Program-made: the position numbers and the translations under genes
Assembly (NCBI RefSeq): GCF_029210385.1
Contig: NZ_JARGDQ010000002.1
Location: 124,001-188,000 of the forward strand
From: Desulfurivibrio dismutans
GTDB taxonomy: Bacteria > Desulfobacterota > Desulfobulbia > Desulfobulbales > Desulfurivibrionaceae
Direction: 5' to 3'
DNA: 64,000 bases
Part shown: positions 5,015-64,000 of the stretch, piece by piece
Position numbering within the stretch: position 1 is the stretch's first letter
How the letters are laid out: each line of letters starts with the position of its first letter
Notes under the pieces: model-generated
What the model saw: the letters and a program-made list of their open reading frames with translations, nothing else
What the model was told of the DNA's origin: nothing
The model's database searches: none

Positions 5015-7182
5015 ACTCTGATCAGCTAAGGACATATAACCGTACCACGAGCGTAGTCTTCCTCAAGACGAAGGAGGCGTTCGGTGGTCTGTCCAATATG
5101 GCTGGCGGATTTCCCCTACGAGTGAATAAAATGGGTATCCTCACATCCGAGGCGCTCTACCAGGCTTGCCGCTTTCCACACCTGCCTGACGTGCAGCACT
5201 TGATCATCGAGCAAAGAAGCCCGATGACAGCGAAGATGAAGAGCAAGCCCTATCGGCGTGATTCGCGGCTGGACTGGTTTCAGGCGCGGGTTAAGATCAT
5301 GCGATGGTGTTTGCGGGTGAAGCTCGCGCAGAACTGGCTCGCATTTAGCGAGCTTCTGCTGGAGACGGATGACCGGCCAATCGTTGAACAGTCCCGCAAG
5401 GATGATTTCTGGGGTGCGAAGCCAATTGATGAGCGCACCCTAGTTGGCATGAATGTTCTTGGCCGATTACTGATGGAGTTGCGAGAGGCGGTAAAGACAA
5501 TGAGTCGCGAGTCGCTTTTGATTGTGCAACCACTTGCGATTCCCGATTTCTTTTTAGGTGGAATGCCTATAGGGATAGTCGCCGCAGAGGGTTCTGAGCT
5601 GAGTGGGGCAAGAGAGCAGGCCCCCGCACAACCGGTAATTGGTCATGTAAGTGGCCCAGCGTCAACGCAATTATCCCTGTTTGACCAACCAATGATGAAG
5701 GTATCTCTGACGGCCGTGAATCTGGCAATCAGTGAAAGGTGCATACGCATCACAGACCTCAAACCTTACCCTGAGTTCAAGGATTCGTTGCAGGAGTGGC
5801 TTGGTGATGTTCCTCAACACTGGTCCGTGGTGCCAAATCGTGCGCTATTTGCAGAGGTAAAGGAACGTAATCACTCAGATGAAGAAATGCTGTCAGTCAC
5901 GATTACGAGGGGAATAGTCAAACAGAAAACCTTGCTAGAAAACAGCTCTAAGAAAGACAGTTCCAATCTGGACAGGTCCGCATACAAGCTCGTTCGGCCA
6001 CGCGATATTGCTTACAACAAGATGCGCGCGTGGCAGGGAGCGATTGGAGCTTCTACGCTGCGTGGAATTATCAGCCCGGCGTACGTCGTCATGCGTCTGC
6101 GCAACGTTGAGGATTTGCCGAGCTACTTCCACCACCTCTACCGCACACCACAGTTTGCAAAGGAAGCAGAGCGCCGGTCCTACGGCATTACGTCAGATAT
6201 GTGGAGCCTTCGACCTGAACACTTCAAGATGATTTACACGCCACTTCCCCCAACCGACGAGCAGGCGGCGATCGTGCGCTTCCTCGACCACGCGGACCGG
6301 CGGATTCGGCGCTACATCCGGACCAAGCAGAAGCTGATCAAGCTGCTGGAGGAGCAGAAACAGGCCATCATTCACCGCGCCGTCACCCGCGGCCTTGACC
6401 CCAACGTCCGCCTCAAGCCCTCCGGCGTGGAGTGGCTGGGGGAGGTGCCGGAGCATTGGGAGGTGTGCAGCTTCCCACGCTGCGCCGTCGAACGCGCCGA
6501 CTACCGTGGGGCGACGCCAACGAAAACTGAAAGTGGCGTCTTCCTGGTCACGGCGAAGAATATCCGCAAAGGATGGATCGACTACGAAGCGTCCCGGGAG
6601 TTCGTATCCCAGCGCGACTACCCTGCAATCATGCGGCGCGGACTCCCTCGGATCGGCGATCTTCTGCTTACGACTGAAGCCCCGCTGGGCAACGCCGCTT
6701 TGGTGGATAGGGAGGATGTGGCGCTGGCCCAGCGAGTAATTCGGTTCCGCATGGATTCAGACCTGCTCAATAGCAATTTCGCCTTGCGCGCGGTGCTGTC
6801 TCCCTACTTCCAGCACCAGCTCCTTCAACGGGGCACTGGGTCAACGGCGCTCGGCATCAAGGCAAGCAAGCTGCCGCAACTTCAGATTCTTTGTCCGCCG
6901 GTTGCGGAGCAGAAGGCGATACTGAGCTTTATCGATGGCCGGTGCACGCCACTCGACAGAGCCATCACTCGGGCGCGTTCAGAGATCGACCTCCTCCGTG
7001 AATACCGCACCCGCCTGATCGCCGACGTGGTCACCGGCAAGCTCGACGTGCGCGAGGCGGCGGCGCGGTTGCCGGACGAGGTCGAGGAGCCCGAGCCGCT
7101 CGACGAGATCGAGACCGAGGGTGAGCCCGACGAGGCAGGCGCTGACGACACCGACGCCGTGCGGGAGGAGGCCGAGGCATGA
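5011..7182 (+). CDS. hsdS: NADAR (YbiA-like) domain fused to type I specificity subunit HsdS
   Basis: A 723-residue fusion. Residues about 12-165 are a NADAR/YbiA-like domain: EAFGGLSNMAGGF, then SEALYQACRF (conserved glutamate), and a C-terminal signature LLLETDDRPIVEQSRKDDFWGA that matches the E-S-x-x-D-x-F-W-G end of the family. NADAR enzymes hydrolyse N-glycosidic bonds, including ADP-ribosyl-guanine in DarT-NADAR modules. A linker of about 80 residues leads to a normal HsdS from residue ~245: TRD1 (to ~410), central conserved region (PPTDEQAAIVRFLDHADRRI), TRD2 starting SGVEWLGEVPEHWEV near 471, and a distal conserved region (PPVAEQKAILSFID) near 627, then an acidic tail. Start is GTG overlapping the upstream stop; the stop overlaps the hsdR ATG (ATGA). 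An internal ATG pair at codon ~230 lacks a Shine-Dalgarno, so a single fused product is favoured. DNA of the first half is AT-richer than the rest. Confidence 0.8.
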   Translation: MNSDQLRTYNRTTSVVFLKTKEAFGGLSNMAGGFPLRVNKMGILTSEALYQACRFPHLPDVQHLIIEQRSPMTAKMKSKPYRRDSRLDWFQARVKIMRWCLRVKLAQNWLAFSELLLETDDRPIVEQSRKDDFWGAKPIDERTLVGMNVLGRLLMELREAVKTMSRESLLIVQPLAIPDFFLGGMPIGIVAAEGSELSGAREQAPAQPVIGHVSGPASTQLSLFDQPMMKVSLTAVNLAISERCIRITDLKPYPEFKDSLQEWLGDVPQHWSVVPNRALFAEVKERNHSDEEMLSVTITRGIVKQKTLLENSSKKDSSNLDRSAYKLVRPRDIAYNKMRAWQGAIGASTLRGIISPAYVVMRLRNVEDLPSYFHHLYRTPQFAKEAERRSYGITSDMWSLRPEHFKMIYTPLPPTDEQAAIVRFLDHADRRIRRYIRTKQKLIKLLEEQKQAIIHRAVTRGLDPNVRLKPSGVEWLGEVPEHWEVCSFPRCAVERADYRGATPTKTESGVFLVTAKNIRKGWIDYEASREFVSQRDYPAIMRRGLPRIGDLLLTTEAPLGNAALVDREDVALAQRVIRFRMDSDLLNSNFALRAVLSPYFQHQLLQRGTGSTALGIKASKLPQLQILCPPVAEQKAILSFIDGRCTPLDRAITRARSEIDLLREYRTRLIADVVTGKLDVREAAARLPDEVEEPEPLDEIETEGEPDEAGADDTDAVREEAEA

Positions 7183-10100
7183 CCACCGACACAAGCGAAT
7201 GCGGCCTGGAGCGCCTTGTCTGCACCGCGCTGACCGGCGATGCCTGCGACCCCGGCGTGGGACCAGCCACCGCAATGCACGAACGTCCGAGGGTCTACGG
7301 CGCTCTTTTTAACGCGCCGGTCACGGCACGTTCAGGCGGCTGGATCTGTGGCACGCCCGATGACTACGACCGCGAGTACTGCGTGGATCTGGCCCAGCTC
7401 TCGGCCTTCCTGGTCGTAACGCAGCCCGAGGTCGCCGGGGCGCTGGCGCTCGATGAGGACGGCCCGACGCGGCGCAAGTTCTTGGCGCGGCTGCAAGGCG
7501 AGATCAGTAAGCGCGGCACCATCGACGTACTGCGCCACGGGCTTAAACACGGGTCGCATACCATCGACCTCTTCTACGGCACCCCTTCGCCGGGCAACGA
7601 AAGGGCCGCCGAACGCTATGCCGCCAACCGCTTCAGCGTCAGCCGCCAGCTCCGCTACAGCCGTGACGAGACCCAGCGGGCGCTGGACCTGGGGCTGTTC
7701 ATCAACGGCCTGCCGGTGGCCACCTTCGAGCTGAAGAACAGCCTCACCAAGCAGACGGTGGAGGACGCGGTCCAGCAGTACCAGCGCGACCGCGATCCCC
7801 GCGAGAAGCTCTTCGAGTTCGGGCGCTGCGTGGTGCACTTCGCGGTGGACGATCACGAGGTGCGTTTCTGCACACACCTAAAAGGCAAGGGTTCGTGGTT
7901 TTTGCCCTTCAACCAGGGCTGGCAGAGCGGCGCCGGCAACCCGCCCAACCCGAACGGCCTCAAGACCGACTACCTCTGGAAGCGCGTCCTTACCCGCGAG
8001 GGGTTGACCGACATCCTTGAGAACTACGCGCAGGTGGTCGAAACCAAAGACGAAAAAACAGGCCGCAGAAAGGCGGCGCAGATCTGGCCGCGCTATCACC
8101 AGCTCGATGTGGTGCGGAAGCTGCTAACCGACGCGCGGACGCGTGGCCCGAGCCGGCGCTACCTGATCCAGCACTCGGCGGGCAGCGGCAAGTCGAACTC
8201 CATTGCCTGGCTGGCGCATCAGCTCATCGGTCTGAAAAAAGACGGGGGGGCGCTGTTCGACTCGATCATCGTCGTCACCGACCGCCGCATCCTCGACCAG
8301 CAGATCAGGGACACCATCAAGCAGTTCGCCCAGGTGGGCGCCACCGTCGGGCACGCCGAACGGTCGGGCGACCTGCGCAGGTTCATCGCCGAGGGCAAAA
8401 AGATCATCATCTCCACGGTGCAGAAGTTCCCGTTCATCCTCGACGAGATCGGCAGCGAGCACCGCGGTCGGCGCTTCGCCATCATCATCGATGAGGCGCA
8501 TTCCAGCCAGGGCGGGCGCACCTCGGCGGCGCTCTCGATGGCGCTCTCCACCGCCGGGGCGGAAGAGGACGACGAGACCCTGGAGGACACCATCAACCGG
8601 CTGATGGAGGCCAAGAAGCTGCTGCCCAACGCCAGCTACTTCGCCTTCACCGCCACGCCGAAGAACAAGACGCTGGAGATCTTCGGCGAGCCCGAGCCCC
8701 AGGCCGACGGCAAGGTGAAGCACTGGCCCTTCCACAGCTACACGATGAAACAGGCCATCCAGGAGGGCTTCATCCTGGACGTGCTCAAGCACTACACGCC
8801 GGTGGGGAGCTATTACAAGTTGGTCAAGAAGGTCGAGGGCGATCCCGTATTCGACAGCAAGCGGGCGAAAAAGAAGCTGCGCCGCTACGTGGAGAGCCAC
8901 GAGCACGCCATCCGACTCAAGGCCGAGATCATGGTGGACCACTTCCACGAGCAGGTGCTGGCGCTCAACAAGATCGGCGGCCAGGCGCGGGCCATGGTAG
9001 TCACCAGCGGGATCGAGCGGGCGATCCTGTACTTCCACGCCATCCGCGACTACCTGGCCGAGCGCAAGAGCCACCATCAGGCCATAGTAGCCTTCTCCGG
9101 CGAGCACGAGTACGGCGGGGCCAAAGTCACTGAGTCGTCGCTTAACGGCTTCCCGTCGAGCCGGATCGCCGACCGGATTCAACAGGACCCCTACCGCTTC
9201 CTGATCTGCGCCGACAAATTCCAGACCGGCTACGACGAGCCCCTGTTGCACACCATGTACGTGGACAAGGTGCTCTCGGGGATTAAGGCGGTGCAGACGC
9301 TCTCGCGGCTCAATCGCGCCCACCCCAAGAAGCACGACGTCTTCGTGCTCGACTTCATGAACGACGCCGACACCATCCAGGAGGCATTCGCCGACTACTA
9401 CCGGACCACGATCCTGGCCGAGGAGACCGACCCGAACAAGCTGCACGACCTCAAGGCCGCGCTCGATGACTCTCAGGTCTACGCTCCCGAGCAGATAGAC
9501 CAGCTCGTGGCGCTCTACTTAGGCGGGGCGGATCGGGACCGGCTCGATCCCATCCTTGATGTCTGTGTCGCCGTGTACAAGGGGCAGCTCGACGAGGACG
9601 GGCAGGTGGACTTCAAGGGCAAGGCCAAGGCGTTTTTGCGCGCCTACGGCTTCCTTTCGTCGATCCTGCCCTACACCAACGCCGAGTGGGAGAAGCTCTC
9701 GATTTTCCTCACCTTCCTCGTGCCCAAACTGCCGGCGCCGGTGGAGGAGGACCTGTCCAAGGGCATCCTCGAGGCGATCGACATGGACAGCTACAGGGTG
9801 GAGAAGCAGGCGGCGATGAAGATCCAGCTCTTCGACGCCGACGCGGAGATCGAACCGGTCCCGACCACCGGCGGCGGCCACAAGCCCGAGCCCGAGATCG
9901 ACCGGCTCTCGAACATCCTCAAGGTCTTCAACGACCAGTTCGGCAACATCCCGTGGACCGATTCCGACCGCGTGCACAAGCTCATTACCGAAGACATTCC
10001 TGGGCGAGTCTCCGCGGACGTGGCTTACCAGAACGCCAGGAAGAACTCCGACAAACAGAACGCCCGTATCGAGCACGACAAGGCCCTGGCTCGCGTGATG

Positions 10101-10214
10101 ACCGCGGTGCTGAAAGACGATACCGAGCTGTTCAAGCAGTTCATGGACAACGAGGGCTTCCGACGCTGGCTGACCGACACGGTGTTCGGGCTGACTTACG
10201 AGGCGGCGGGGTAG
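7179..10214 (+). CDS. hsdR: Type I restriction endonuclease subunit HsdR
   Basis: A 1011-residue ATP-dependent restriction and translocation subunit. The N-terminal nuclease domain carries the E-x-K part of the PD-(D/E)xK site in [11 protein letters not shown] near residues 178-187. The helicase motor has Walker A ([10 protein letters not shown], near 330), the DEAH motif ([11 protein letters not shown], near 434), FTATPK (motif III-like), and a late helicase motif region around LSRLNRAHP. The C-terminus ends in [14 protein letters not shown], typical of this HsdR subtype, so the protein is complete. The ATG overlaps the hsdS stop by 4 bp, indicating translational coupling. Together with hsdM and hsdS it forms a full R2M2S complex. 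All motifs look intact, so the system is probably active. Confidence 0.95.
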
Positions 10215-10320
10215 ATGGCCTGACCCGCCGATAAGGGGAAATAGGGGTTCTTCCCGGTTTTCAGTGCGTAGCCGGATATATATCGAGTCCACCGAAATGA
10301 AACAAGATCAGGAGAAAAAT

Positions 10321-10593
10321 ATGTCGCAAATTAAAACTGGTTTGTGCGAGGAATGTGGCAAGGATTACAGTGAGATTAAGACCGTCTGCGGTCATTGCGG
10401 CTATTCTCCCCATGGCGAAGCCATCATGACCAAGGAGGATCCTCATTGGAAGTGCGGGAATTGCGGCAGGACCGTTCAAGCGCTTCAGCCGCCGGAAAAA
10501 TGCCCAAGCTGCGGCGAGATTTGTGATTTCAAAAACGTTTCCTGCTACCTCCCTGAATGCGGGGGGCCGGGCAATGTTGACCCGCGGCTTTGA
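10321..10593 (+). CDS. Small zinc-ribbon / rubredoxin-like protein
   Basis: A 90-residue cysteine-rich protein. CxxC pairs occur as CEEC, CGHC, CGNC and CPSC, with additional cysteines near the end ([15 protein letters not shown]). The middle segment [23 protein letters not shown] is typical of the rubredoxin-like zinc/iron ribbons seen in rubrerythrin C-termini and many small anaerobe proteins. The ATG at 10321 is chosen because aggag lies 7-10 bases upstream; an upstream in-frame ATG at 10297 or the start at 10264 has no such site. It is downstream of hsdR with a 106-bp gap and is probably an independent gene. Metal binding is well supported by the motif; a specific function is not. It could be a redox carrier or a structural zinc protein. 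Confidence 0.65.
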
Positions 10594-55281: not shown

Positions 55282-56028
55282 CTATTGCCAGCTGAGGACC
55301 AGGCGGGTGTAGTAAGTGGTATCCAGCCGCTCTTCCACCACCGGCCGGCTTTCATAATCGTTGCGGACCCCCATCCGCAGCTTCCAGAAGTCGCCGGTGC
55401 CCACCGGAATCTCCAAGGCGCTGTCGTGGAACACCCGATAATCGCCAAAGTCGGCAAGACTGGGGGAGTAGGTCAGCTCGTTGCGCAGGCTCCACTGGCG
55501 ACCAAACTCATAACGGTGAACCAGCCCCAGGTCCATGGTGGGGTCGGAATCACTGCCTAGCTCGTTATCATAACGGGTATAGCGATAGCCGATACCACTC
55601 CTGGCTACCAGGGTATGATGCTCCCGGTTGAGGAGCCGGTAGGACAAACCGGTGCCGGAGGTGGAGCGCCACCTTATCCGATCGATCACATCCTTTTCCA
55701 GTGCCGTCCGGACGTACCAACCCAGGTACTTGCTGGGGAAAGATTCATAATCGGCCGCCCCCAGCATTCGATCGGTGGTTTTCTCACCATCGGTTTTCCG
55801 GCGCTCATATTCCGTGATCAGCTTCAGAGCATCATCGGTCCCCTTTAAAGTGGCGGTCAGACCGCCCCCCAGCCCGAACTCCCGGGTATTGCCCTCCTTG
55901 CCCACCAAATCCAGTTCCGCCTCATACAGCCAGCGCCGCAACTCCTCCCCGGAGGCATCCGACACCCAGGCCGGCAAGGAGAAAGAGATGAGAAAAACCA
56001 CCAACACCAACGTACCGCGAGCAAACAT
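55282..56028 (-). CDS. DUF481 outer-membrane beta-barrel-like protein
   Basis: A 248-residue exported protein. The start MFARGTLVLVVFLISFSLPA provides a signal peptide, and GAGG sits 7 bases before this ATG; a possible ATG at 56043 and the longer frame to 56211 lack both. The mature part alternates hydrophobic and polar residues in about ten beta strands (YESFPSKYLGWYVRTALEKD, HTLVARSGIGYRYTRYD, HRYEFGRQWSLRNELTYSPS) and ends in YYTRLVLSWQ. This matches the DUF481/YdiY family of putative small outer-membrane barrels. Function is unknown. Its upstream region carries repeat unit B2. Confidence 0.75.
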   Translation of the reverse strand: MFARGTLVLVVFLISFSLPAWVSDASGEELRRWLYEAELDLVGKEGNTREFGLGGGLTATLKGTDDALKLITEYERRKTDGEKTTDRMLGAADYESFPSKYLGWYVRTALEKDVIDRIRWRSTSGTGLSYRLLNREHHTLVARSGIGYRYTRYDNELGSDSDPTMDLGLVHRYEFGRQWSLRNELTYSPSLADFGDYRVFHDSALEIPVGTGDFWKLRMGVRNDYESRPVVEERLDTTYYTRLVLSWQ

Positions 56029-56498
56029 AAAAAACCTCAGCATTTGGTCACATGGAAGATCGTGCCATTGGCTCTCAATCTGTAGAAACAAACCACATGA
56101 CAACATGTCATTAGTCAACAAAAAATGATCATTCCAGTCAACCTTAAATGGCCTGCTGCCACAAGAGTTTTTTTCAAAATATAACTTCCCGGCTGTCAGC
56201 AAAGCACCCACCGGGCAATACGCTTGACAACCACCTCGGTAAGCCCCTATGGTAACTTGCGATTGAGGTGTAATTTTTTGTAACTGTCCAGCCGCACCCC
56301 ATCTTGCGGCGATCAGGTCGGCTTGAGTACCTGATGTACGCTACGCCGACCTGGCTTACCGCAACCTGGGGCACGGCTGAACAGTTACGTGCCAGAATGA
56401 GCCGGCCAGAATGAGCTGGATAGTTACATTTTTTTTATGTTAGTCGGTCCTTTGGCCGGTTGACGGCCTGACCCCAAATAAACCGAGGAGTTGCCCTT
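56029..56498. other. Divergent intergenic region between DUF481 and alcohol dehydrogenase genes
   Basis: About 470 bp without a supported gene. It contains repeat unit B2 (56280-56427). The alcohol dehydrogenase start is preceded by gaggag at 56480-56485. The segment 56029-56270 is AT-richer and holds nothing recognisable apart from the DUF481 ribosome site. Confidence 0.6.
56280..56427. repeat. 148-bp repeat unit B2 containing a B-type palindrome
   Basis: Inverted relative to B1, exactly the same length (148 bp) and similar throughout. The 109-bp palindrome is at 56280-56388; the extra 39 bp with TGGCCGG-separated CCAGAATGAG repeats lie to its right. The unit is directly flanked by ATTTTTT on both sides (56273-56279 and 56428-56434), a possible target duplication, although the sequence is low complexity. 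Confidence 0.9.
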
Positions 56499-57661: not shown

Positions 57662-58771
57662 CTAGAACAGGTCCGCAATGTAACCGGCCCCGTGATAATG
57701 GCAGGAGACACAGTCACCGACATAGCCGGCAAAGTGCAGCGACCCGCGAAGCCCGTTACCAACGTCCCCGCCCTGCTCATGGGTATGACAAACCGCGCAG
57801 AGCTGTTCAAAGTTACGTTCGCTGACCGCCACCGAAGAACTTAAGACCGCAGCGTCGGTCAATTCGCCGGCGGTATCGGCCCGCTCGGTAATCAGATAGG
57901 GGTTACCGGAAGAGTGGACGAAGTGGCAGTCGGTGCAACTGAGCACCATGCCGGCTTCATAACCGGCCCGGTAGACGTTGGGCAAGCCGGCCGACACCAC
58001 TGGTTTGTCGGCCTGGGAGGTGCCGGACCGGAATCCGTGAATGTCGGCGGTGGCCCGGCGTTCGGCATCGGTGCTGCCGGCACCCATAAAGGACCGCTGC
58101 AGATCGGTATAAACCGGGGCCTGAGGCAGTTCGGGATATCTCAGCGGCGGCGGGATAATATCGCCGACGGGGGTGGAAACCCCGTCAAAGTCGTGGCAGG
58201 TGAGGCAAAAATCGTTGATGGAATCATAGCTGACCCCGGCCCGAAAACGGGTCAGATCATCGTTCAAATCAAAGGTGCCGTCCATGTTGGAGCGTTCATG
58301 GCAAACCACGCAATCGACGTCCCGCAAGGCGTTGCCGCCGATATGGGTGATGGTGTGGGCATGCTCCTTTTTGAATTGCCCGGCGCCGGCCATGACCCCG
58401 CTGTTGCCGTGGCAAATCAGGCATTCCCGGCCCTGGACGGGATCCAGGCCGTTGGTGTCGTGACAGGCCAGGCAGGACCGCTGGACATCACCGCCCACCC
58501 GGTCGGCCAATCGCACCAGGCTGTCGGCGATCCCTTTCATCTCGGCATGCATGGCCTCCACCCGTTCCATGGGGTGGCAGGTAAGGCAGTCTTTGCGGCC
58601 CCAACCCAGTCCACCGGCATGATCATCGGAGCTGAGCAGCCGCGGCGCCACCCCGGTACCGGGGGGATCATAGTCATCTTTGGCCGCAGAGCTGCTGCCG
58701 CCGCAGGCGGCCAGCAACAGGCCGGCGGAGATGACAAGCACTGCCAGGGTTATCGGGTTCCAGCTTTTCAT
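57662..58771 (-). CDS. Octaheme c-type cytochrome lipoprotein
   Basis: A 369-residue exported cytochrome. The start MKSWNPITLAVLVISAGLLL with lipobox LLAAC indicates a lipid-anchored protein; agagg lies 8-12 bases upstream, and in-frame codons further up overlap the next gene. Eight CXXCH motifs are visible: CLTCH, CLACH, CLICH, CVVCH, CLTCH, CTDCH, CAVCH and CVSCH. Extra histidines near several of them suggest bis-His ligation. It is the last gene of the cytochrome operon, 19 bp after the 20-heme cytochrome, and could be the periplasm-facing or surface lipoprotein partner. Confidence 0.9.
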   Translation of the reverse strand: MKSWNPITLAVLVISAGLLLAACGGSSSAAKDDYDPPGTGVAPRLLSSDDHAGGLGWGRKDCLTCHPMERVEAMHAEMKGIADSLVRLADRVGGDVQRSCLACHDTNGLDPVQGRECLICHGNSGVMAGAGQFKKEHAHTITHIGGNALRDVDCVVCHERSNMDGTFDLNDDLTRFRAGVSYDSINDFCLTCHDFDGVSTPVGDIIPPPLRYPELPQAPVYTDLQRSFMGAGSTDAERRATADIHGFRSGTSQADKPVVSAGLPNVYRAGYEAGMVLSCTDCHFVHSSGNPYLITERADTAGELTDAAVLSSSVAVSERNFEQLCAVCHTHEQGGDVGNGLRGSLHFAGYVGDCVSCHYHGAGYIADLF

Positions 58772-58790
58772 CAAGCTACCTCTGTCTTGC

Positions 58791-61304
58791 TTAATTACCG
58801 CGGAATCGCCGCAGCAGTTCCCGCAGAGCGCCAACCGGATCGTCGGCGTAGTAGGGGCTGTCTTCGGTGCGTGCCTTTTCCTCGTGATAAAAAAGGTACT
58901 TGGTCCGCACCTGGCTGCCGTGACAATCAACACAGAAGGTGGCGGCGGGGTCACCCATTTTGAGGAAGGCCTGCTGGGGCGAAGTTATCACCTTGTCTTC
59001 CCGGGCCAGCAGCTGCCGACTCCAGATATGGGGATCATGGCAGGTGGCGCAGACAAACTCCCGCTCCACCGCCGCCATGGTCTTCTCAGGGTCGGAGAGA
59101 TCCAGCCGGGCCAGCAGGACCGGGTCGGTGAGCAGCAGGGCCTCCGGGTGGCGGTACAGACTCACCCGGGAATCCTCACCGGGCTCGCCGGGCCGGTGGC
59201 AATCCAGGCAGAGACGGTTCTGTTCCTTGTCATCGGGCAACACACCGGCAAGATCCCGCCCCCAGAGCCGATCACCATGGGCGTTGTGGGGAGCGTGACA
59301 CTGTTCGCAAACCCCCAGTTCCATCGCCCGGCCGGCATGGGCCGAGAGGTCATGGTCACTGTCGATGACCAGGGCCGGAGTGCGGTGGCATTGGGCGCAG
59401 AGCTCACCCCCGCGGTTATCGACCAGCAGAAAGCTGCTGCTCACGTCACCCTCCAGCAGGTAACCCGGCCCCGGTTCTGTCTGGCCGGGCGCCCAGCGAT
59501 GGACATCATGGCAGGAAAGACAGGTAACCTCCTGGTCGGCCAGTTCCTCGCTGCTCTCGCTTTCTTCCGGTTTTTCGCCCATGGGGTGGCTGATCTCACC
59601 GATCAATCTCTCACGCCCCACCCGGTTTTCTTCATGGCAGGAAAGGCAATAGAAATTTTCCGGATTGCGGCTAATGGCCTCGGGATAAGTCACCTCCGGC
59701 GGTGCCACAGCAAACCCAACCGGTTCTGGCCCTTCGTGCATCAGGTGGCAGGCGCCGCAGGCGCCGCTCATTCCCGGTTTCTCCCCCCGGATGTTGCGGT
59801 ATTCCAGTTCAAAGAGGCGAGGATCGTGATTGGCGCCTTCCACCACCATCTGGTCGGTGTGGCACCGGGAGCACATCTCGGTGAAGTCCTCGATCCGCAA
59901 AAAGCGGGTGGAGATCAGGCCGCGTTCATCTCGGCCCTCCGGAGTGCCGTAAACCTGCCCCAATGACTGATGGGAGTCATGGCAGGTGTTGCAGTAAATT
60001 TTGTCGCCCGGTGTGAAATCGTGGTTATAGAGCGGCAGGCCATGGTCATCCCGGGGGCTGGCTCCATCCAGGTTGACCCCGACGCTGTGGCTGTAAGGTC
60101 CGGCCAGTTCCATTTCCAGCCGGCCCCGGCCGGGAGCGTGACAGGTGTTGCAGGCCTCGGTGGCGGGATCCTCCCCGGCCCGCATCTCCTGCTGCCAACC
60201 GTGGGCGCTATGACAGATGCCGCACAGACCGGCGTCGGCCACGTGCTGTTCATTAAGATTTTGCAGTTGCAACTCGAGATCGGTGATCAGCAGGTTGTGG
60301 GGGGTATCTTTGATCACCTTTTTGCTGTCGTGGCAGGACAGGCAAAGGTCCGACTCCCGGGTATCGGCCATCACCAGCAGGGCCTCTTCATCCTGCCCCT
60401 GGTGAATATTATGGCAGGACTGGCAGGTCAGCTTTTCATCCTCCAGCCGGGCGCCGGCTTCTTCCAGGGCGGCGGGAAACTCGGCCTGATCAAAATCCAC
60501 ATCCATTACATGGGCCAGGAAATCACCTTCACCGGCTTGCCGTATATTCTGCTCTTCGTGGCACTGACCACAGAAATTGGCCATCCCCGCCGCCACCGGC
60601 AGCAGGCTCTCCTGCTGCTTGGCGCCATGGACCACATGGCAGGAGTTGCAGATCACCTCTTCGGCCATTTTGCGCCCCGGTCGCAGGCGCAACTCCCGCA
60701 GATCGCCGGGAAACCCCTGGGCGATCTCCTCCCCCACCGAATGGCGCCCCTTGGCGGGACCGGTATCGTAATCCTGATGACAGGCCATGCACATCTCGGA
60801 GTTGGGGTTTTCCATGCGCAAGAAAAGATCATAGCTCAACTCTTCCACTTCGCCGGACTGGGCCGAATGAATGGTATGGCAGGTACCGCAATAAATTTCG
60901 TCGTTAACACTGAGCGGAAAGCGGCGCTCATCGATTTCCATTTCCTCGGAGGGTTTTTCAAACACCGTGTGACGCTTGCCGGTCCAGACATAGCGGGAAT
61001 CGGCGATATAACCGTCGTGGCAGCTGTAGCACATCTCCTCGTCGCTTACCAGCCCGTAGGTGCTCTTCATCAACACATTATCGCCCACCCAGGGGATCAG
61101 GGTTTCAACCTCCTGTTTAAACTCGTCCATCCACATGACATGGCAGACGGCGCATTCCCGCTTGGACGACTCTTCCAGCAAAGCGCCGGGGTGGGCTTGG
61201 ACCTGACCGCCAAACAGCAGCAGCAATGCCGCCAGGGTCAGGGCCGACAAAAGCGGGCGCCAGCGCCGTGTCGAGTTATCTCCGTTCCACCCCCGACCGC
61301 TCAT
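58791..61304 (-). CDS. 20-heme c-type cytochrome
   Basis: An 837-residue exported multiheme cytochrome with 20 CXXCH motifs counted by eye (from CAVCH near residue 50 to CVDCH near 790), spread evenly over the whole protein, with many CXXCHxxH patterns (e.g. CHTIH, CHVVHG, CHNIH, CHSAH, CHDSH, CHLMH, CHDVH). A signal peptide is present (RPLLSALTLAALLLLFGGQVQA). ATG at 61304 overlaps the NHL gene stop (ATGA) and has GGAGA upstream; ATG 61319 lacks such a site. No porin or membrane helix is present. It could store or conduct electrons over nanometre distances in the periplasm or at the cell surface. Exact family not recognised. Confidence 0.92.
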   Translation of the reverse strand: MSGRGWNGDNSTRRWRPLLSALTLAALLLLFGGQVQAHPGALLEESSKRECAVCHVMWMDEFKQEVETLIPWVGDNVLMKSTYGLVSDEEMCYSCHDGYIADSRYVWTGKRHTVFEKPSEEMEIDERRFPLSVNDEIYCGTCHTIHSAQSGEVEELSYDLFLRMENPNSEMCMACHQDYDTGPAKGRHSVGEEIAQGFPGDLRELRLRPGRKMAEEVICNSCHVVHGAKQQESLLPVAAGMANFCGQCHEEQNIRQAGEGDFLAHVMDVDFDQAEFPAALEEAGARLEDEKLTCQSCHNIHQGQDEEALLVMADTRESDLCLSCHDSKKVIKDTPHNLLITDLELQLQNLNEQHVADAGLCGICHSAHGWQQEMRAGEDPATEACNTCHAPGRGRLEMELAGPYSHSVGVNLDGASPRDDHGLPLYNHDFTPGDKIYCNTCHDSHQSLGQVYGTPEGRDERGLISTRFLRIEDFTEMCSRCHTDQMVVEGANHDPRLFELEYRNIRGEKPGMSGACGACHLMHEGPEPVGFAVAPPEVTYPEAISRNPENFYCLSCHEENRVGRERLIGEISHPMGEKPEESESSEELADQEVTCLSCHDVHRWAPGQTEPGPGYLLEGDVSSSFLLVDNRGGELCAQCHRTPALVIDSDHDLSAHAGRAMELGVCEQCHAPHNAHGDRLWGRDLAGVLPDDKEQNRLCLDCHRPGEPGEDSRVSLYRHPEALLLTDPVLLARLDLSDPEKTMAAVEREFVCATCHDPHIWSRQLLAREDKVITSPQQAFLKMGDPAATFCVDCHGSQVRTKYLFYHEEKARTEDSPYYADDPVGALRELLRRFRGN

Positions 61305-62236
61305 GGTTCCAGTCTCCATACACTTACTCGGTTTTCCAGCTGTTCCACCACGTAGAGGCGATTATTGGCAAAGGCCATGTTGGTGGGAGTCCGAAAGCGG
61401 ATATTTTCTCCCTGACCATCAGCCAGGATCCCCATCAGTCCACCGGCCGTTCGAAAGACCTGAATCACCCCGGTATAGCTGTCGGAGACAAAAGCCCGGT
61501 CACCCACCACCAGTACTCCCTTGGGGCGAAACAACCGCCCCGGGGTGATGCCCCACCCCCCCAGCCACTGGGCCTGGCGCCCGGAAGTCCGGAACCCCTT
61601 GACCCGGTTGTTGATCACATCCACCACAAAGATGACGCCATCGGCATCGATATCCAGAGTGGCCGGGAAACGAAACTCGCTGCTCCCTTCTCCAAATCGT
61701 CCCCAGTGCCGCAGCCTTTCACCTTCCCGGTTGTAAACCTGAACCCGGTGATTGTTGTTGTCGGCCAGAAATATCTCACCGGCAGGGGAAACCACGCAAT
61801 CGGTAATATCCGGTTTTTCGCCCTCCTGTACCGGGACTACGTCAAAGCCGCCCAGCAGCGCTCCACGGGTTGAATAGGCCAGCAGGCGACCGGTTTCCGC
61901 ATCCGGCACGTAAAGGCCGCCGTCACCGCTGGCACAGATGCCGATGGCCCGGGGAATTTCACGGGGGCTGCCAAACTGGCGACGATAGTTGCCCTCCAGG
62001 TCGTACACTGCCACCCGGTGATTCATACCATCCAGGACATAGAGCTCGCCATCAACGATGGTGAGATCGGTGGGCAGTTCCATGGCCAGGCCGGCGGCGT
62101 CCTCAATGGCAAAGTCAAATTCCACCAGGATCTTCTCGTAGGCCAGGGCCGCACGCGGCCCGGCGACCGAAAGCAGGGTCAGCGCCAGCAACAGCAGCAG
62201 CAACCGGCTTGGTTTATGACTTGGGCCGGCAACCAT
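61301..62236 (-). CDS. NHL-repeat beta-propeller protein, exported
   Basis: A 311-residue protein with a signal peptide (LLLLLLALTLLSVAGPRAALA). At least five NHL-type blades are visible: LPTDLTIVDGELYVLDGMNH-RVAVYD, AIGICASGDGGLYVPDAETG, CVVSPAGEIFLADNNNHRVQVYN, FPATLDIDADGVIFVVDVIN-NRVKGF, RPKGVLVVGDRAFVSDSYTG and a last TNMAFANNRLYVVEQLENRV, consistent with a six-bladed propeller. In cytochrome operons such propellers probably act as scaffold or assembly partners. Overlaps the upstream gene by TGATG and the downstream one by ATGA. Confidence 0.88.
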   Translation of the reverse strand: MVAGPSHKPSRLLLLLLALTLLSVAGPRAALAYEKILVEFDFAIEDAAGLAMELPTDLTIVDGELYVLDGMNHRVAVYDLEGNYRRQFGSPREIPRAIGICASGDGGLYVPDAETGRLLAYSTRGALLGGFDVVPVQEGEKPDITDCVVSPAGEIFLADNNNHRVQVYNREGERLRHWGRFGEGSSEFRFPATLDIDADGVIFVVDVINNRVKGFRTSGRQAQWLGGWGITPGRLFRPKGVLVVGDRAFVSDSYTGVIQVFRTAGGLMGILADGQGENIRFRTPTNMAFANNRLYVVEQLENRVSVWRLEP

Positions 62237-63984
62237 CAGCGACCCTCCCGGCGCGGTGAAAACAGCTGGGGTAGATGGAAACGCTCATCCTGGTCGTATT
62301 TCTCAATCAGGCCAAGAATGGCGCTGCCGGTCAACTCCCGGATCCGCTGTTCGGAGTAGCCCAGCTCCCGGAAGGGCAGGTACTGGATCTCCGGGTCGTG
62401 GCAATCCCGGCAGGAGACCGGCTCCGGGGTCAGGCCGTCGTGGAGGCGGCGCAGGTAATCGACCCGCTGGCCACGACTCAGGGTCGCCTGCAGATCCTGA
62501 TATTCGCTGCTCAGGATGGCCCGGTCGGGCCCGTCAAAGCGTTCCAGCCGGCCGTTGCGCCGGACAAAGGGAGCAATGCGGCAATCAACCCGCTCCTCCA
62601 CCCGGGTGTCGCAACCCAGGGCCTCGTCCTGAACCTCGCCGCCATCCTTGGAGAACCAGTAGAAATTGGCAAACAGCTCTTCCCCGTTCTGCTGCCGGGG
62701 CACATGGCACACCTCGCAAGAGAAGTAGAAGGTGTGCATATTGATGTAAGAACGCTTGATATCGATATCCTCATGGACCAGATCACCATGGCACGCCACA
62801 CAGGAAGAATGCTGGTCGGAGGCGATATCGATCCCCACGTTATGGAAATGCCCGCTCAAGTCCTCGATGGAATCCAGCCGGTACCCCCGATACTCCTCCT
62901 TGTTGTTGAAACCCTCCAGGGCACTGATACCCTCCAGCCGGACCTCTTTCAGTACGGTCTGGGGTGGCGGCTCGATTTTCTTGGGCCGCTCCCGGGGGAA
63001 AAAGCCATGGGAGCTGTAAATCGACAGATCCAGGATCATCCAGATCAGGACCACGGCAACAGCCGAAATCACCCCGCCGAAGATCAGCTTGGTGGACTTT
63101 CTTTCCTGCCAGTGATGCTCATGCTCCCCGGGCTCGTACTGGCCCTTGATCTCATGCTCCAGCCCCTCGGCCTTCATCATCGTCACGTACTCATCGTAGT
63201 GCTCCTCAATCATGTCGTGTTCCGACAGGTAGCCGGTGATGAAGACCCGCCCCATGGGGAATTTATGGCGGTGCAGATGGGTGTTGTAAATATGCCAGAC
63301 CAACAGGAAGCTGGCGGCCAGCAAGGCCTCGTCGGTATGGGCGATGTAGGAGATGTTGAATACGATGCCGGGTAGGTAATGGGAGAAAAACTCCAGGTTC
63401 CACATAAAGATGCCGGTCAGGCCCAGCAGCGGGGTGCCCCAGTAAACAGCGAAGTAGTCGAACTTCTCTTTCCACATGAACTTATCGTAGCGGGGCTTTT
63501 TGTCACTGATAAAAAGGTGATACTTGATGTAATCCACCAGGTCGGTGCCATCTTTGACATGGGGAATCATCGGGACGTTGTAAAAGGCCACCAGGGCGTT
63601 CCAGAAGGTGAATTCCCCCCGTTGCCTCATGGGCTTGATGTCCTCCCGGTAAAAGACGGCGATGAAATAGATCATGTGGTAAACAAACAACGTACACAGT
63701 GCCACCCCGGCAATGCGGTGCAGGATGGGGGCCATCTCGATGCCGCCCAGCAGGGCAAAAACGTGCTGCCAAAAGACGGAATCCGGAAATTTAAGGGGAA
63801 AGCCGGTGAGGATCAGAATCAATACCGACAGGGCCAGCCAGATATGCTGGATCCGCTGGTGCAGGCTGAACCGGAAGAAGAACTTATCCCCATTGTAGAC
63901 ATATATCCGGTTTCTCCGAAACTCGTAGGGAGAAACGGGCAGTTCCGTCCTGGGCCGTTGATTATCATTGCCGCTACTTGTCAT
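62236..63984 (-). CDS. Membrane cytochrome b fused to triheme cytochrome c
   Basis: A 582-residue fusion. The N-terminal ~335 residues form a di-heme cytochrome b of the formate-dehydrogenase-gamma/CbcL type, with about five helices (LALSVLILILTGFPL, IAGVALCTLFVYHMIYFIAVF, YFAVYWGTPLLGLTGIFMW, ALLAASFLLVWHIYNTHLH, LIFGGVISAVAVVLIWMILDL) and candidate heme histidines in LHQRIQHIW, LHRIAG, VYHM and VWHIYNTH. The C-terminal half has three CXXCH motifs (CVACH, CEVCH, CRDCH) and faces the periplasm. It would oxidise menaquinol and pass electrons to the following cytochromes. GGGAC precedes the ATG. It is the first gene visible in the operon; more may lie beyond the window. Confidence 0.88.
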   Translation of the reverse strand: MTSSGNDNQRPRTELPVSPYEFRRNRIYVYNGDKFFFRFSLHQRIQHIWLALSVLILILTGFPLKFPDSVFWQHVFALLGGIEMAPILHRIAGVALCTLFVYHMIYFIAVFYREDIKPMRQRGEFTFWNALVAFYNVPMIPHVKDGTDLVDYIKYHLFISDKKPRYDKFMWKEKFDYFAVYWGTPLLGLTGIFMWNLEFFSHYLPGIVFNISYIAHTDEALLAASFLLVWHIYNTHLHRHKFPMGRVFITGYLSEHDMIEEHYDEYVTMMKAEGLEHEIKGQYEPGEHEHHWQERKSTKLIFGGVISAVAVVLIWMILDLSIYSSHGFFPRERPKKIEPPPQTVLKEVRLEGISALEGFNNKEEYRGYRLDSIEDLSGHFHNVGIDIASDQHSSCVACHGDLVHEDIDIKRSYINMHTFYFSCEVCHVPRQQNGEELFANFYWFSKDGGEVQDEALGCDTRVEERVDCRIAPFVRRNGRLERFDGPDRAILSSEYQDLQATLSRGQRVDYLRRLHDGLTPEPVSCRDCHDPEIQYLPFRELGYSEQRIRELTGSAILGLIEKYDQDERFHLPQLFSPRREGR

Positions 63985-64000
63985 GATGCTTGTCCCTTTC

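What the first reader, a model, noticed from the sequence alone, without database searches (positions are those of the whole stretch)
57662..63984. Four-gene electron conduit: cytochrome b-c fusion, NHL propeller, 20-heme and 8-heme cytochromes
Overlapping stops and starts tie the genes together. Hemes add up to 31 c-type plus the b hemes. The order matches a path from menaquinol to periplasm to a long multiheme conductor and a lipid-anchored octaheme protein. Known Geobacter systems use CbcL-like b-c fusions and NHL partners, but a porin is missing here, and the 20-heme protein does not match an OmcB-type protein that I recognise. It may be a new conduit for extracellular or interspecies electron transfer.
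Basis: partly seen in the sequence, partly recalled or inferred. Interest (0 to 1): 0.62.

Follow-up and report, generated by a model that had tools for sequence, protein, structure and literature searches.

The report
Envelope-spanning cytochrome conduit operon
The four cytochrome genes at the window's edge are the second half of a nine-gene operon in a Desulfurivibrio-type sulfur bacterium that appears to encode a complete wire, outer-membrane porin included, for moving electrons between the inner membrane and the cell surface; it is an unusual combination of known kinds of parts, not a new kind of system.

Summary
The four genes are real: a cytochrome b fused to three c-hemes, an NHL propeller, a 20-heme and an 8-heme lipoprotein cytochrome (31 CXXCH). 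The porin is not missing: the window stops inside the operon. The contig continues with a 6-heme membrane-anchored cytochrome, an 8-heme and a 7-heme cytochrome, a 440-aa outer-membrane barrel candidate and a 9-heme surface lipoprotein: nine genes, 61 c-hemes. The order is conserved in Desulfurivibrio alkaliphilus (71-93% identity), and all nine genes recur in another genus of the family.

Parts: (1) a CbcL-like quinol module, but split (6c + b-3c) and in a sister clade to true CbcL; (2) a porin plus OmaB-like plug, as in Geobacter-type Pcc conduits; (3) a surface cytochrome of the OcwA/NrfA family without OcwA's His-His pockets. The inner module recurs, mostly without this porin, across Desulfobacterota and Deferribacterota. 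D. alkaliphilus has one strong CbcL-like gene, this one, so the "CbcL homologue" reported as up-regulated on ferrihydrite is probably from this operon (inferred; locus tags not seen).

Verdict: conduit reading supported; "no porin" is a window-edge artefact. New variant of a known kind. Direction and substrate unproven.

The parts
62236..63984 (-). Gene A: cytochrome b (FdnI/b561 type, four invariant His H47, H89, H216, H231, five predicted TM helices) fused to a C-terminal periplasmic 3-heme c domain, 582 aa
   Evidence: best fold match FdnI 1kqf_C, TM-score by target 0.72
61301..62236 (-). Gene B: exported NHL-repeat propeller, 311 aa, no heme; starts on the last base of A's stop codon
58791..61319 (-). 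Gene C: exported 20-heme cytochrome c, 842 aa, signal peptide, no lipobox, no internal TM
   Evidence: homologues with 14-31 hemes
57662..58771 (-). Gene D: 8-heme lipoprotein cytochrome, 369 aa from ATG 58771 (the GTG 58954 start is unlikely)
63974..64000 (-). Last bases of gene E (6-heme cytochrome with C-terminal TM anchor, 364 aa, L002:3975-5069), cut by the window's end. Beyond the window on the same strand, in L002 (G000:C12:184000-203000) coordinates: gene F, exported 8-heme cytochrome, 5066-6220; gene G, 7-heme OmaB-like plug, 196 aa, probable lipoprotein, 6193-6783; gene H, outer-membrane barrel candidate, 440 aa, 6780-8102; gene I, 9-heme OcwA/NrfA-family surface lipoprotein, 786 aa, 8102-10462
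   Evidence: E-F; G; H; I:

Best explanation
The locus is a nine-gene operon (I-H-G-F-E-A-B-C-D) encoding a complete electron conduit across the Gram-negative envelope. Inferred route: menaquinol is oxidised by the diheme cytochrome b of A; electrons pass to the 3 c-hemes of A and the 6 c-hemes of its membrane-anchored partner E; they cross the periplasm through the 20-heme C and 8-heme F, with the NHL propeller B as a non-redox scaffold; they enter the outer membrane through the 7-heme plug G inside barrel H; and they leave through the 9-heme surface lipoprotein I (and perhaps 8-heme lipoprotein D) to an extracellular acceptor, most likely Fe(III) oxide and possibly solid sulfur. Shown here: gene order and conservation, heme counts, export and lipoprotein signals, FdnI-like b domain, OcwA-like I, and recurrent porin-plug pairing. 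Inferred: physical assembly, order of transfer, outward direction, acceptor.
For: Tight nine-gene operon with 61 CXXCH, conserved gene for gene in G002 (71-93%) and with all nine genes in G013 (38-55%; D moved next to the outer-membrane genes). G002 carries both published D. alkaliphilus RT-qPCR primer sites. A: FdnI fold match and four invariant His; its b domain is sister to the CbcL clade. H: distant homologues have a G-like cytochrome beside them in five of seven loci, usually with a surface multiheme lipoprotein; barrel-like alternation; Phe C-termini in homologues. I: profile matches OcwA at 1.5e-20, cytochrome cf at 1.2e-14 and NrfA at 1.6e-10. G002 has one strong CbcL-like b gene, this one, and PMC12545173 reports up-regulation on ferrihydrite of a CbcL homologue and of MHC genes from a porin-cytochrome cluster in D. 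alkaliphilus.
Against: No experiment on these proteins; the link to the published transcriptome is by exclusion, since locus tags are in supplements that could not be read. H has no Pfam or PDB match of its own, only one distant homologue matches OMP_b-brl weakly, its barrel signal is weak in the window's own sequence (z 1.5), and the single-sequence structure model failed (pLDDT 32). I belongs to a family that includes soluble-substrate reductases. Most E-A-B-C operons elsewhere show no H homologue within the stretch examined, so the inner module can serve other outlets.
Confidence: 0.72

Rival explanations
1. Same conduit, opposite direction: it takes up electrons from extracellular donors (Fe(II)/FeS, Fe0, or a syntrophic partner) and delivers them through C and A to menaquinone.
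For: Anatomy of conduits does not fix direction; related conduits are proposed for uptake in ANME-partner sulfate reducers (OetABI, PMC10553843).
Against: The b-c entry module is closest to CbcL, an outward menaquinol oxidase (PMC9129911); a CbcL homologue of D. alkaliphilus is up-regulated on ferrihydrite with sulfide, FeS and formate as donors (PMC12545173).
Confidence: 0.15
2. A respiratory enzyme system: I is a surface or periplasmic reductase of nitrite, hydroxylamine, polysulfide or another soluble acceptor (NrfA/OTR/MccA-like) and the other proteins feed it.
For: I is in the NrfA/OcwA family; OcwA itself reduces nitrite and hydroxylamine slowly (PMC6703420).
Against: No CXXCK catalytic heme in any of the nine proteins; the two His-His motifs above OcwA's open hemes align to non-His or a single His in I; a barrel plus plug would be needless for a periplasmic enzyme.
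Confidence: 0.08
3. Two separate systems placed side by side: an inner-membrane/periplasmic E-A-B-C-F module with another outlet, and a Pcc conduit I-H-G(-D) charged by other periplasmic cytochromes.
For: E-A-B-C recurs mostly without H; the genome has a second outer-membrane conduit set at C12:1-9.7 kb that could be fed too.
Against: Overlapping stops and starts run through the whole operon, and all nine genes stay together in two genera.
Confidence: 0.2

Closest known systems
Porin-cytochrome (Pcc) conduits of Geobacter and relatives (OmbB-OmaB-OmcB; Shi 2014, PMC4245776)
   Same: Barrel, adjacent small periplasmic multiheme plug and outer-membrane multiheme lipoprotein encoded together; H and G align with porin/plug pairs of other Desulfobacterota
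   Different: G has 7 hemes with a rearranged N-terminus; I is OcwA/NrfA-type; the same operon also carries a quinol module and a 20-heme cytochrome
CbcL, inner-membrane bc cytochrome of Geobacter sulfurreducens (PMC9129911)
   Same: FdnI-type diheme b plus nine c-hemes counted over E + A; probable menaquinol oxidase
   Different: Two polypeptides (6c+TM and b+3c) instead of one (9c then b); b domain falls in a separate, supported clade
OcwA, nonaheme surface reductase of Thermincola potens (PDB 6i5b; PMC6703420)
   Same: Nine CXXCH that align one to one, C-terminal DGSxGxHN helix region
   Different: His-His motifs of OcwA's two open hemes not conserved; in a Gram-negative porin operon; PKD-like domain added
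OetABI conduit of ANME-partner sulfate reducers (PMC10553843)
   Same: Porin with periplasmic and extracellular cytochromes in Desulfobacterota
   Different: Homology of H to OetI not tested here (no OetI sequence at hand); no OmcX/OmcS-like gene among the nine genes
MISO electron-transfer genes of D. alkaliphilus (PMC12545173)
   Same: Same genus; CbcL homologue and a putative porin-cytochrome cluster up-regulated on ferrihydrite, probably including this operon
   Different: The window's genome has no detectable homologue of that study's top OmcS-like cytochrome DA_402

Membership tests
[quoted passage not shown]
   H: signal peptide, no internal TM helix, weak barrel periodicity, homologues beside plug cytochromes; no Pfam/PDB match of its own; failed single-sequence model
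Porin-cytochrome (Pcc) conduit | Adjacent gene for a small periplasmic multiheme plug | tested here: met
   G, 7 CXXCH in 196 aa, overlapping H by 4 nt; aligns with the 5-9 heme proteins next to the H homologues
Porin-cytochrome (Pcc) conduit | Outer-membrane multiheme lipoprotein | tested here: met
   I, 9 CXXCH, lipobox-like FTSC; and D, 8 CXXCH, LAAC; localisation itself not testable here
[quoted passage not shown]
   needs mutants or proteoliposomes
CbcL | Nine c-hemes N-terminal to a diheme b domain in one chain | tested here: not met
   A has b then 3c; the 6c domain is the separate gene E
CbcL | b domain within the CbcL clade | tested here: not met
   9c+b proteins form their own clade (100/99); A lies in the sister clade (99/96)
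CbcL | FdnI-type diheme b with four His ligands | tested here: met
   H47, H89, H216, H231 invariant in 8 sequences; FdnI top fold hit
OcwA | Nine CXXCH in an NrfA-family fold | tested here: met
   profile vs 6i5b E 1.5e-20, nine motifs aligned
OcwA | His-His motifs over open hemes 2 and 5 | tested here: not met
   positions read non-His and a single His (H612) in I
MtrCAB | Decaheme MtrA with MtrB/PioB porin | tested here: not met
   H has no MtrB/PioB Pfam match and G has 7 hemes; an MtrA/OmcA-like set lies elsewhere on the contig
OetABI | Porin homologous to OetI | not tested

The most novel reading that the evidence does not exclude
The E-A-B-C core (split CbcL-like quinol oxidase, NHL scaffold, 14-31-heme cytochrome) is an unnamed, widespread inner-membrane-to-periplasm wiring module of Desulfobacterota and Deferribacterota, and in Desulfurivibrio it is joined to a Pcc outlet to form one continuous complex of about 61 c-hemes that spans the envelope without soluble triheme shuttles.
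Probability: 0.3. Interest if true: 0.7.

Novelty: new variant of a known kind. Interest (0 to 1): 0.47.

Why it matters
Extracellular electron transfer is usually pieced together from scattered genes; here every step from quinol to cell surface sits in one operon, in a genus shown to grow by coupling sulfide oxidation to Fe(III) oxide reduction. That gives a compact, testable gene set for that metabolism, and a window genome in which no OmcS-like filament protein was detected lets one ask whether a conduit suffices without it. It also puts an OcwA-type cytochrome, best known from Gram-positive bacteria, at the outer end of a Gram-negative porin conduit, and points to a recurrent, apparently unnamed quinol-wiring module in other anaerobes.

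Tried and rejected
Porin missing: rejected, window-edge artefact. CbcL membership of A: rejected by architecture and tree. MtrCAB: rejected for this operon; a separate MtrA/OmcA-like set sits at C12:1-9.7 kb. Reductase reading of I: lowered by absent CXXCK and His-His motifs. A viral-contig scan with the porin alignment was not possible (no conserved stretch). PDB searches for H gave nothing useful; a sequence search of C against PDB gave nothing. The NCBIfam hit of I to 'UshA-like (seleno)protein' is far below its cut-off (46.8 vs 275 bits) and was not used. The locus tags of the published ferrihydrite-induced genes could not be read (supplements not available).
Full report
Where the window lies. 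The window is bases 124001-188000 of contig 12 of a 2.84-Mb genome. A same-genus genome, G002 (3.10 Mb, one contig), contains exact sites for two published Desulfurivibrio alkaliphilus RT-qPCR primers (DA_402 at 468.7 kb, recA at 2,211.4 kb; primers from PMC12545173), so G002 is D. alkaliphilus or a near-identical strain and the window is a Desulfurivibrio-type bacterium.

What is really there. The four ORFs exist as described, with 3, 0, 20 and 8 CXXCH. The 8-heme gene was started too far upstream: ATG 58771 gives 369 aa with a signal peptide and lipobox LAAC, and the orthologue begins at the same place. The finding stops at the window's edge, not at the operon's edge. On the same strand (L002) follow E (6 CXXCH, C-terminal TM; L002:3975-5069), F (8; 5066-6220), G (7, 196 aa; 6193-6783), H (440 aa, no heme; 6780-8102) and I (9, 786 aa; 8102-10462). 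L002 position p is window position p + 59999. Neighbouring genes overlap or nearly touch throughout. The nine genes hold 61 CXXCH. The order is I-H-G-F-E-A-B-C-D in transcription sense, flanked by a beta-lactamase-fold gene upstream and a convergent Fe-dependent alcohol dehydrogenase downstream.

Conservation. All nine genes are present in the same order in G002 (71-93% identity) and in G013, another genus of the family, published as Deltaproteobacteria bacterium RIFOXYD12_FULL_56_24 (38-55% identity), where D sits between G and F. A third, fragmented genome of the genus, from MAG CSSed10_361, carries E-A-B-C with the start of D and the end of F on a 7-kb contig. Within the family H is found in 3 of 27 genomes, so the full operon is patchy.

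Inner-membrane module. A has five predicted TM helices; its AlphaFold model is moderate only in the b domain (blocks mostly 52-88) and its only credible fold match is E. coli FdnI, chain 1kqf_C (TM-score by target 0.72, Foldseek probability 1.00, though E-value 0.067). Four His, H47, H89, H216 and H231, are invariant in eight relatives; their spacing matches the four heme ligands of FdnI (from memory). The C-terminal domain carries three c-hemes. E adds six c-hemes on a C-terminal anchor. Together they equal CbcL's nine c-hemes and two b-hemes (PMC9129911), but split and rearranged; in one other genome E and A are fused as 6c-b-3c (889 aa). In a tree of the b domain the 9c+b CbcL-type proteins form their own clade (100/99), and A lies in the sister clade (99/96) with A-type proteins of other E-A operons. 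So A works like CbcL but is not a CbcL by architecture or clade.

Periplasmic part. B is an exported NHL propeller without heme motif; C (20 hemes) and F (8 hemes) are exported and have no further TM or lipobox. E, A, B and a C with 14-31 hemes recur together in many Desulfobacterota and in a Deferribacteraceae genome; Calditerrivibrio has E, A and F. They are sometimes repeated two or three times in one locus and showed no H homologue within the stretches examined.

Outer-membrane part. H has no Pfam match and no PDB match of note but has distant homologues in seven further genomes of the phylum. In five of these loci a G-like 5-9-heme protein stands next to the H homologue, usually followed by a surface multiheme lipoprotein; that is the Pcc arrangement. 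Several homologues end in a Phe barrel signature, one matches OMP_b-brl weakly, and hydrophobic alternation in the family is like that of barrel controls and unlike soluble controls, though weak for the window's own H (z 1.5). A single-sequence model of the G013 orthologue was useless. I is the most distinctive part: a profile of seven I-like proteins matches OcwA (6i5b) at 1.5e-20, cytochrome cf (6qvm) at 1.2e-14 and NrfA at 1.6e-10, with all nine heme motifs in register and a shared C-terminal DGSxGxHN region independent of the heme motifs. The His-His pairs that OcwA places over its two open hemes (PMC6703420) are not conserved in I, and no CXXCK occurs. I is therefore better read as a surface electron-transfer or mineral-contact cytochrome than as a nitrite reductase; this is inference.

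Expression evidence from the literature. PMC12545173 reports that D. alkaliphilus, growing by sulfide oxidation with ferrihydrite, up-regulates 13 of 46 multiheme genes, among them a CbcL homologue, and labels some as belonging to a putative porin-cytochrome cluster. G002 holds only one strong match to the A-type b domain, in this operon; the next is a 225-aa protein at E 6.4e-4. The reported CbcL homologue is thus probably A (or E) of this operon. This is by exclusion. The AHT2 porin named in PMC5539420 (DaAHT2_2270) would by interpolation lie near 2.60-2.68 Mb, where a different MtrA/OmcA-like set sits (2.638-2.648 Mb), not at 2.449 Mb; numbering schemes differ, so this is not proven.

Other conduits in the genome. 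The same MtrA/OmcA-like set (9-, 10-, 8- and 10-heme proteins and a barrel candidate) is at C12:1-9.7 kb here, and in G013 it directly adjoins this operon. The window genome (99.99% complete) gave no match to the D. alkaliphilus OmcS-like cytochrome DA_402.

Conclusion. Best reading: an envelope-spanning electron conduit of Pcc type with a CbcL-like quinol module and an OcwA-like surface cytochrome, most likely exporting electrons to Fe(III) oxides. Shown: genes, conservation, families. Inferred: assembly, route, direction, acceptor. It is a new variant of a known kind.

Noticed in passing
L018 (G000:C12:1-9709), L016/L017 (G002:C1:2638712-2647680), L020 (G013:C18 about 44.2-50.5 kb): A second outer-membrane conduit set: 9-heme, barrel candidate (C-terminal Phe), 10-heme MtrA/GSU2203-like, 8-heme and 10-11-heme OmcA/MtrC-like lipoprotein; in G013 it directly adjoins the operon studied here.
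   Followed up: partly
G000 whole genome: No detectable homologue of the D. alkaliphilus OmcS-like cytochrome DA_402, and far fewer Paired_CXXCH matches than D. alkaliphilus (11 vs 69): the large cytochrome clusters at 450-486 kb and 889-911 kb of D. alkaliphilus seem largely absent.
   Followed up: partly
L043:7089-9758 (G107), L062, L064, L058: Tandem repeats of the E-A-B-C module in single loci, in one case with E and A fused into one 889-aa 6c-b-3c protein; Deferribacterota carry it too (L059, L060).
   Followed up: partly
L073:8517-12761 (G214), L081:818-4989 (G163): A related module: 9-heme cytochrome, cytochrome b, then a 16-heme protein with an N-terminal NapC-like anchor.
   Followed up: no
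window 55282-56211: DUF481 outer-membrane-type protein (Pfam 2e-30) next to the convergent Fe-alcohol dehydrogenase; both are conserved beside the operon in D. alkaliphilus.
   Followed up: no
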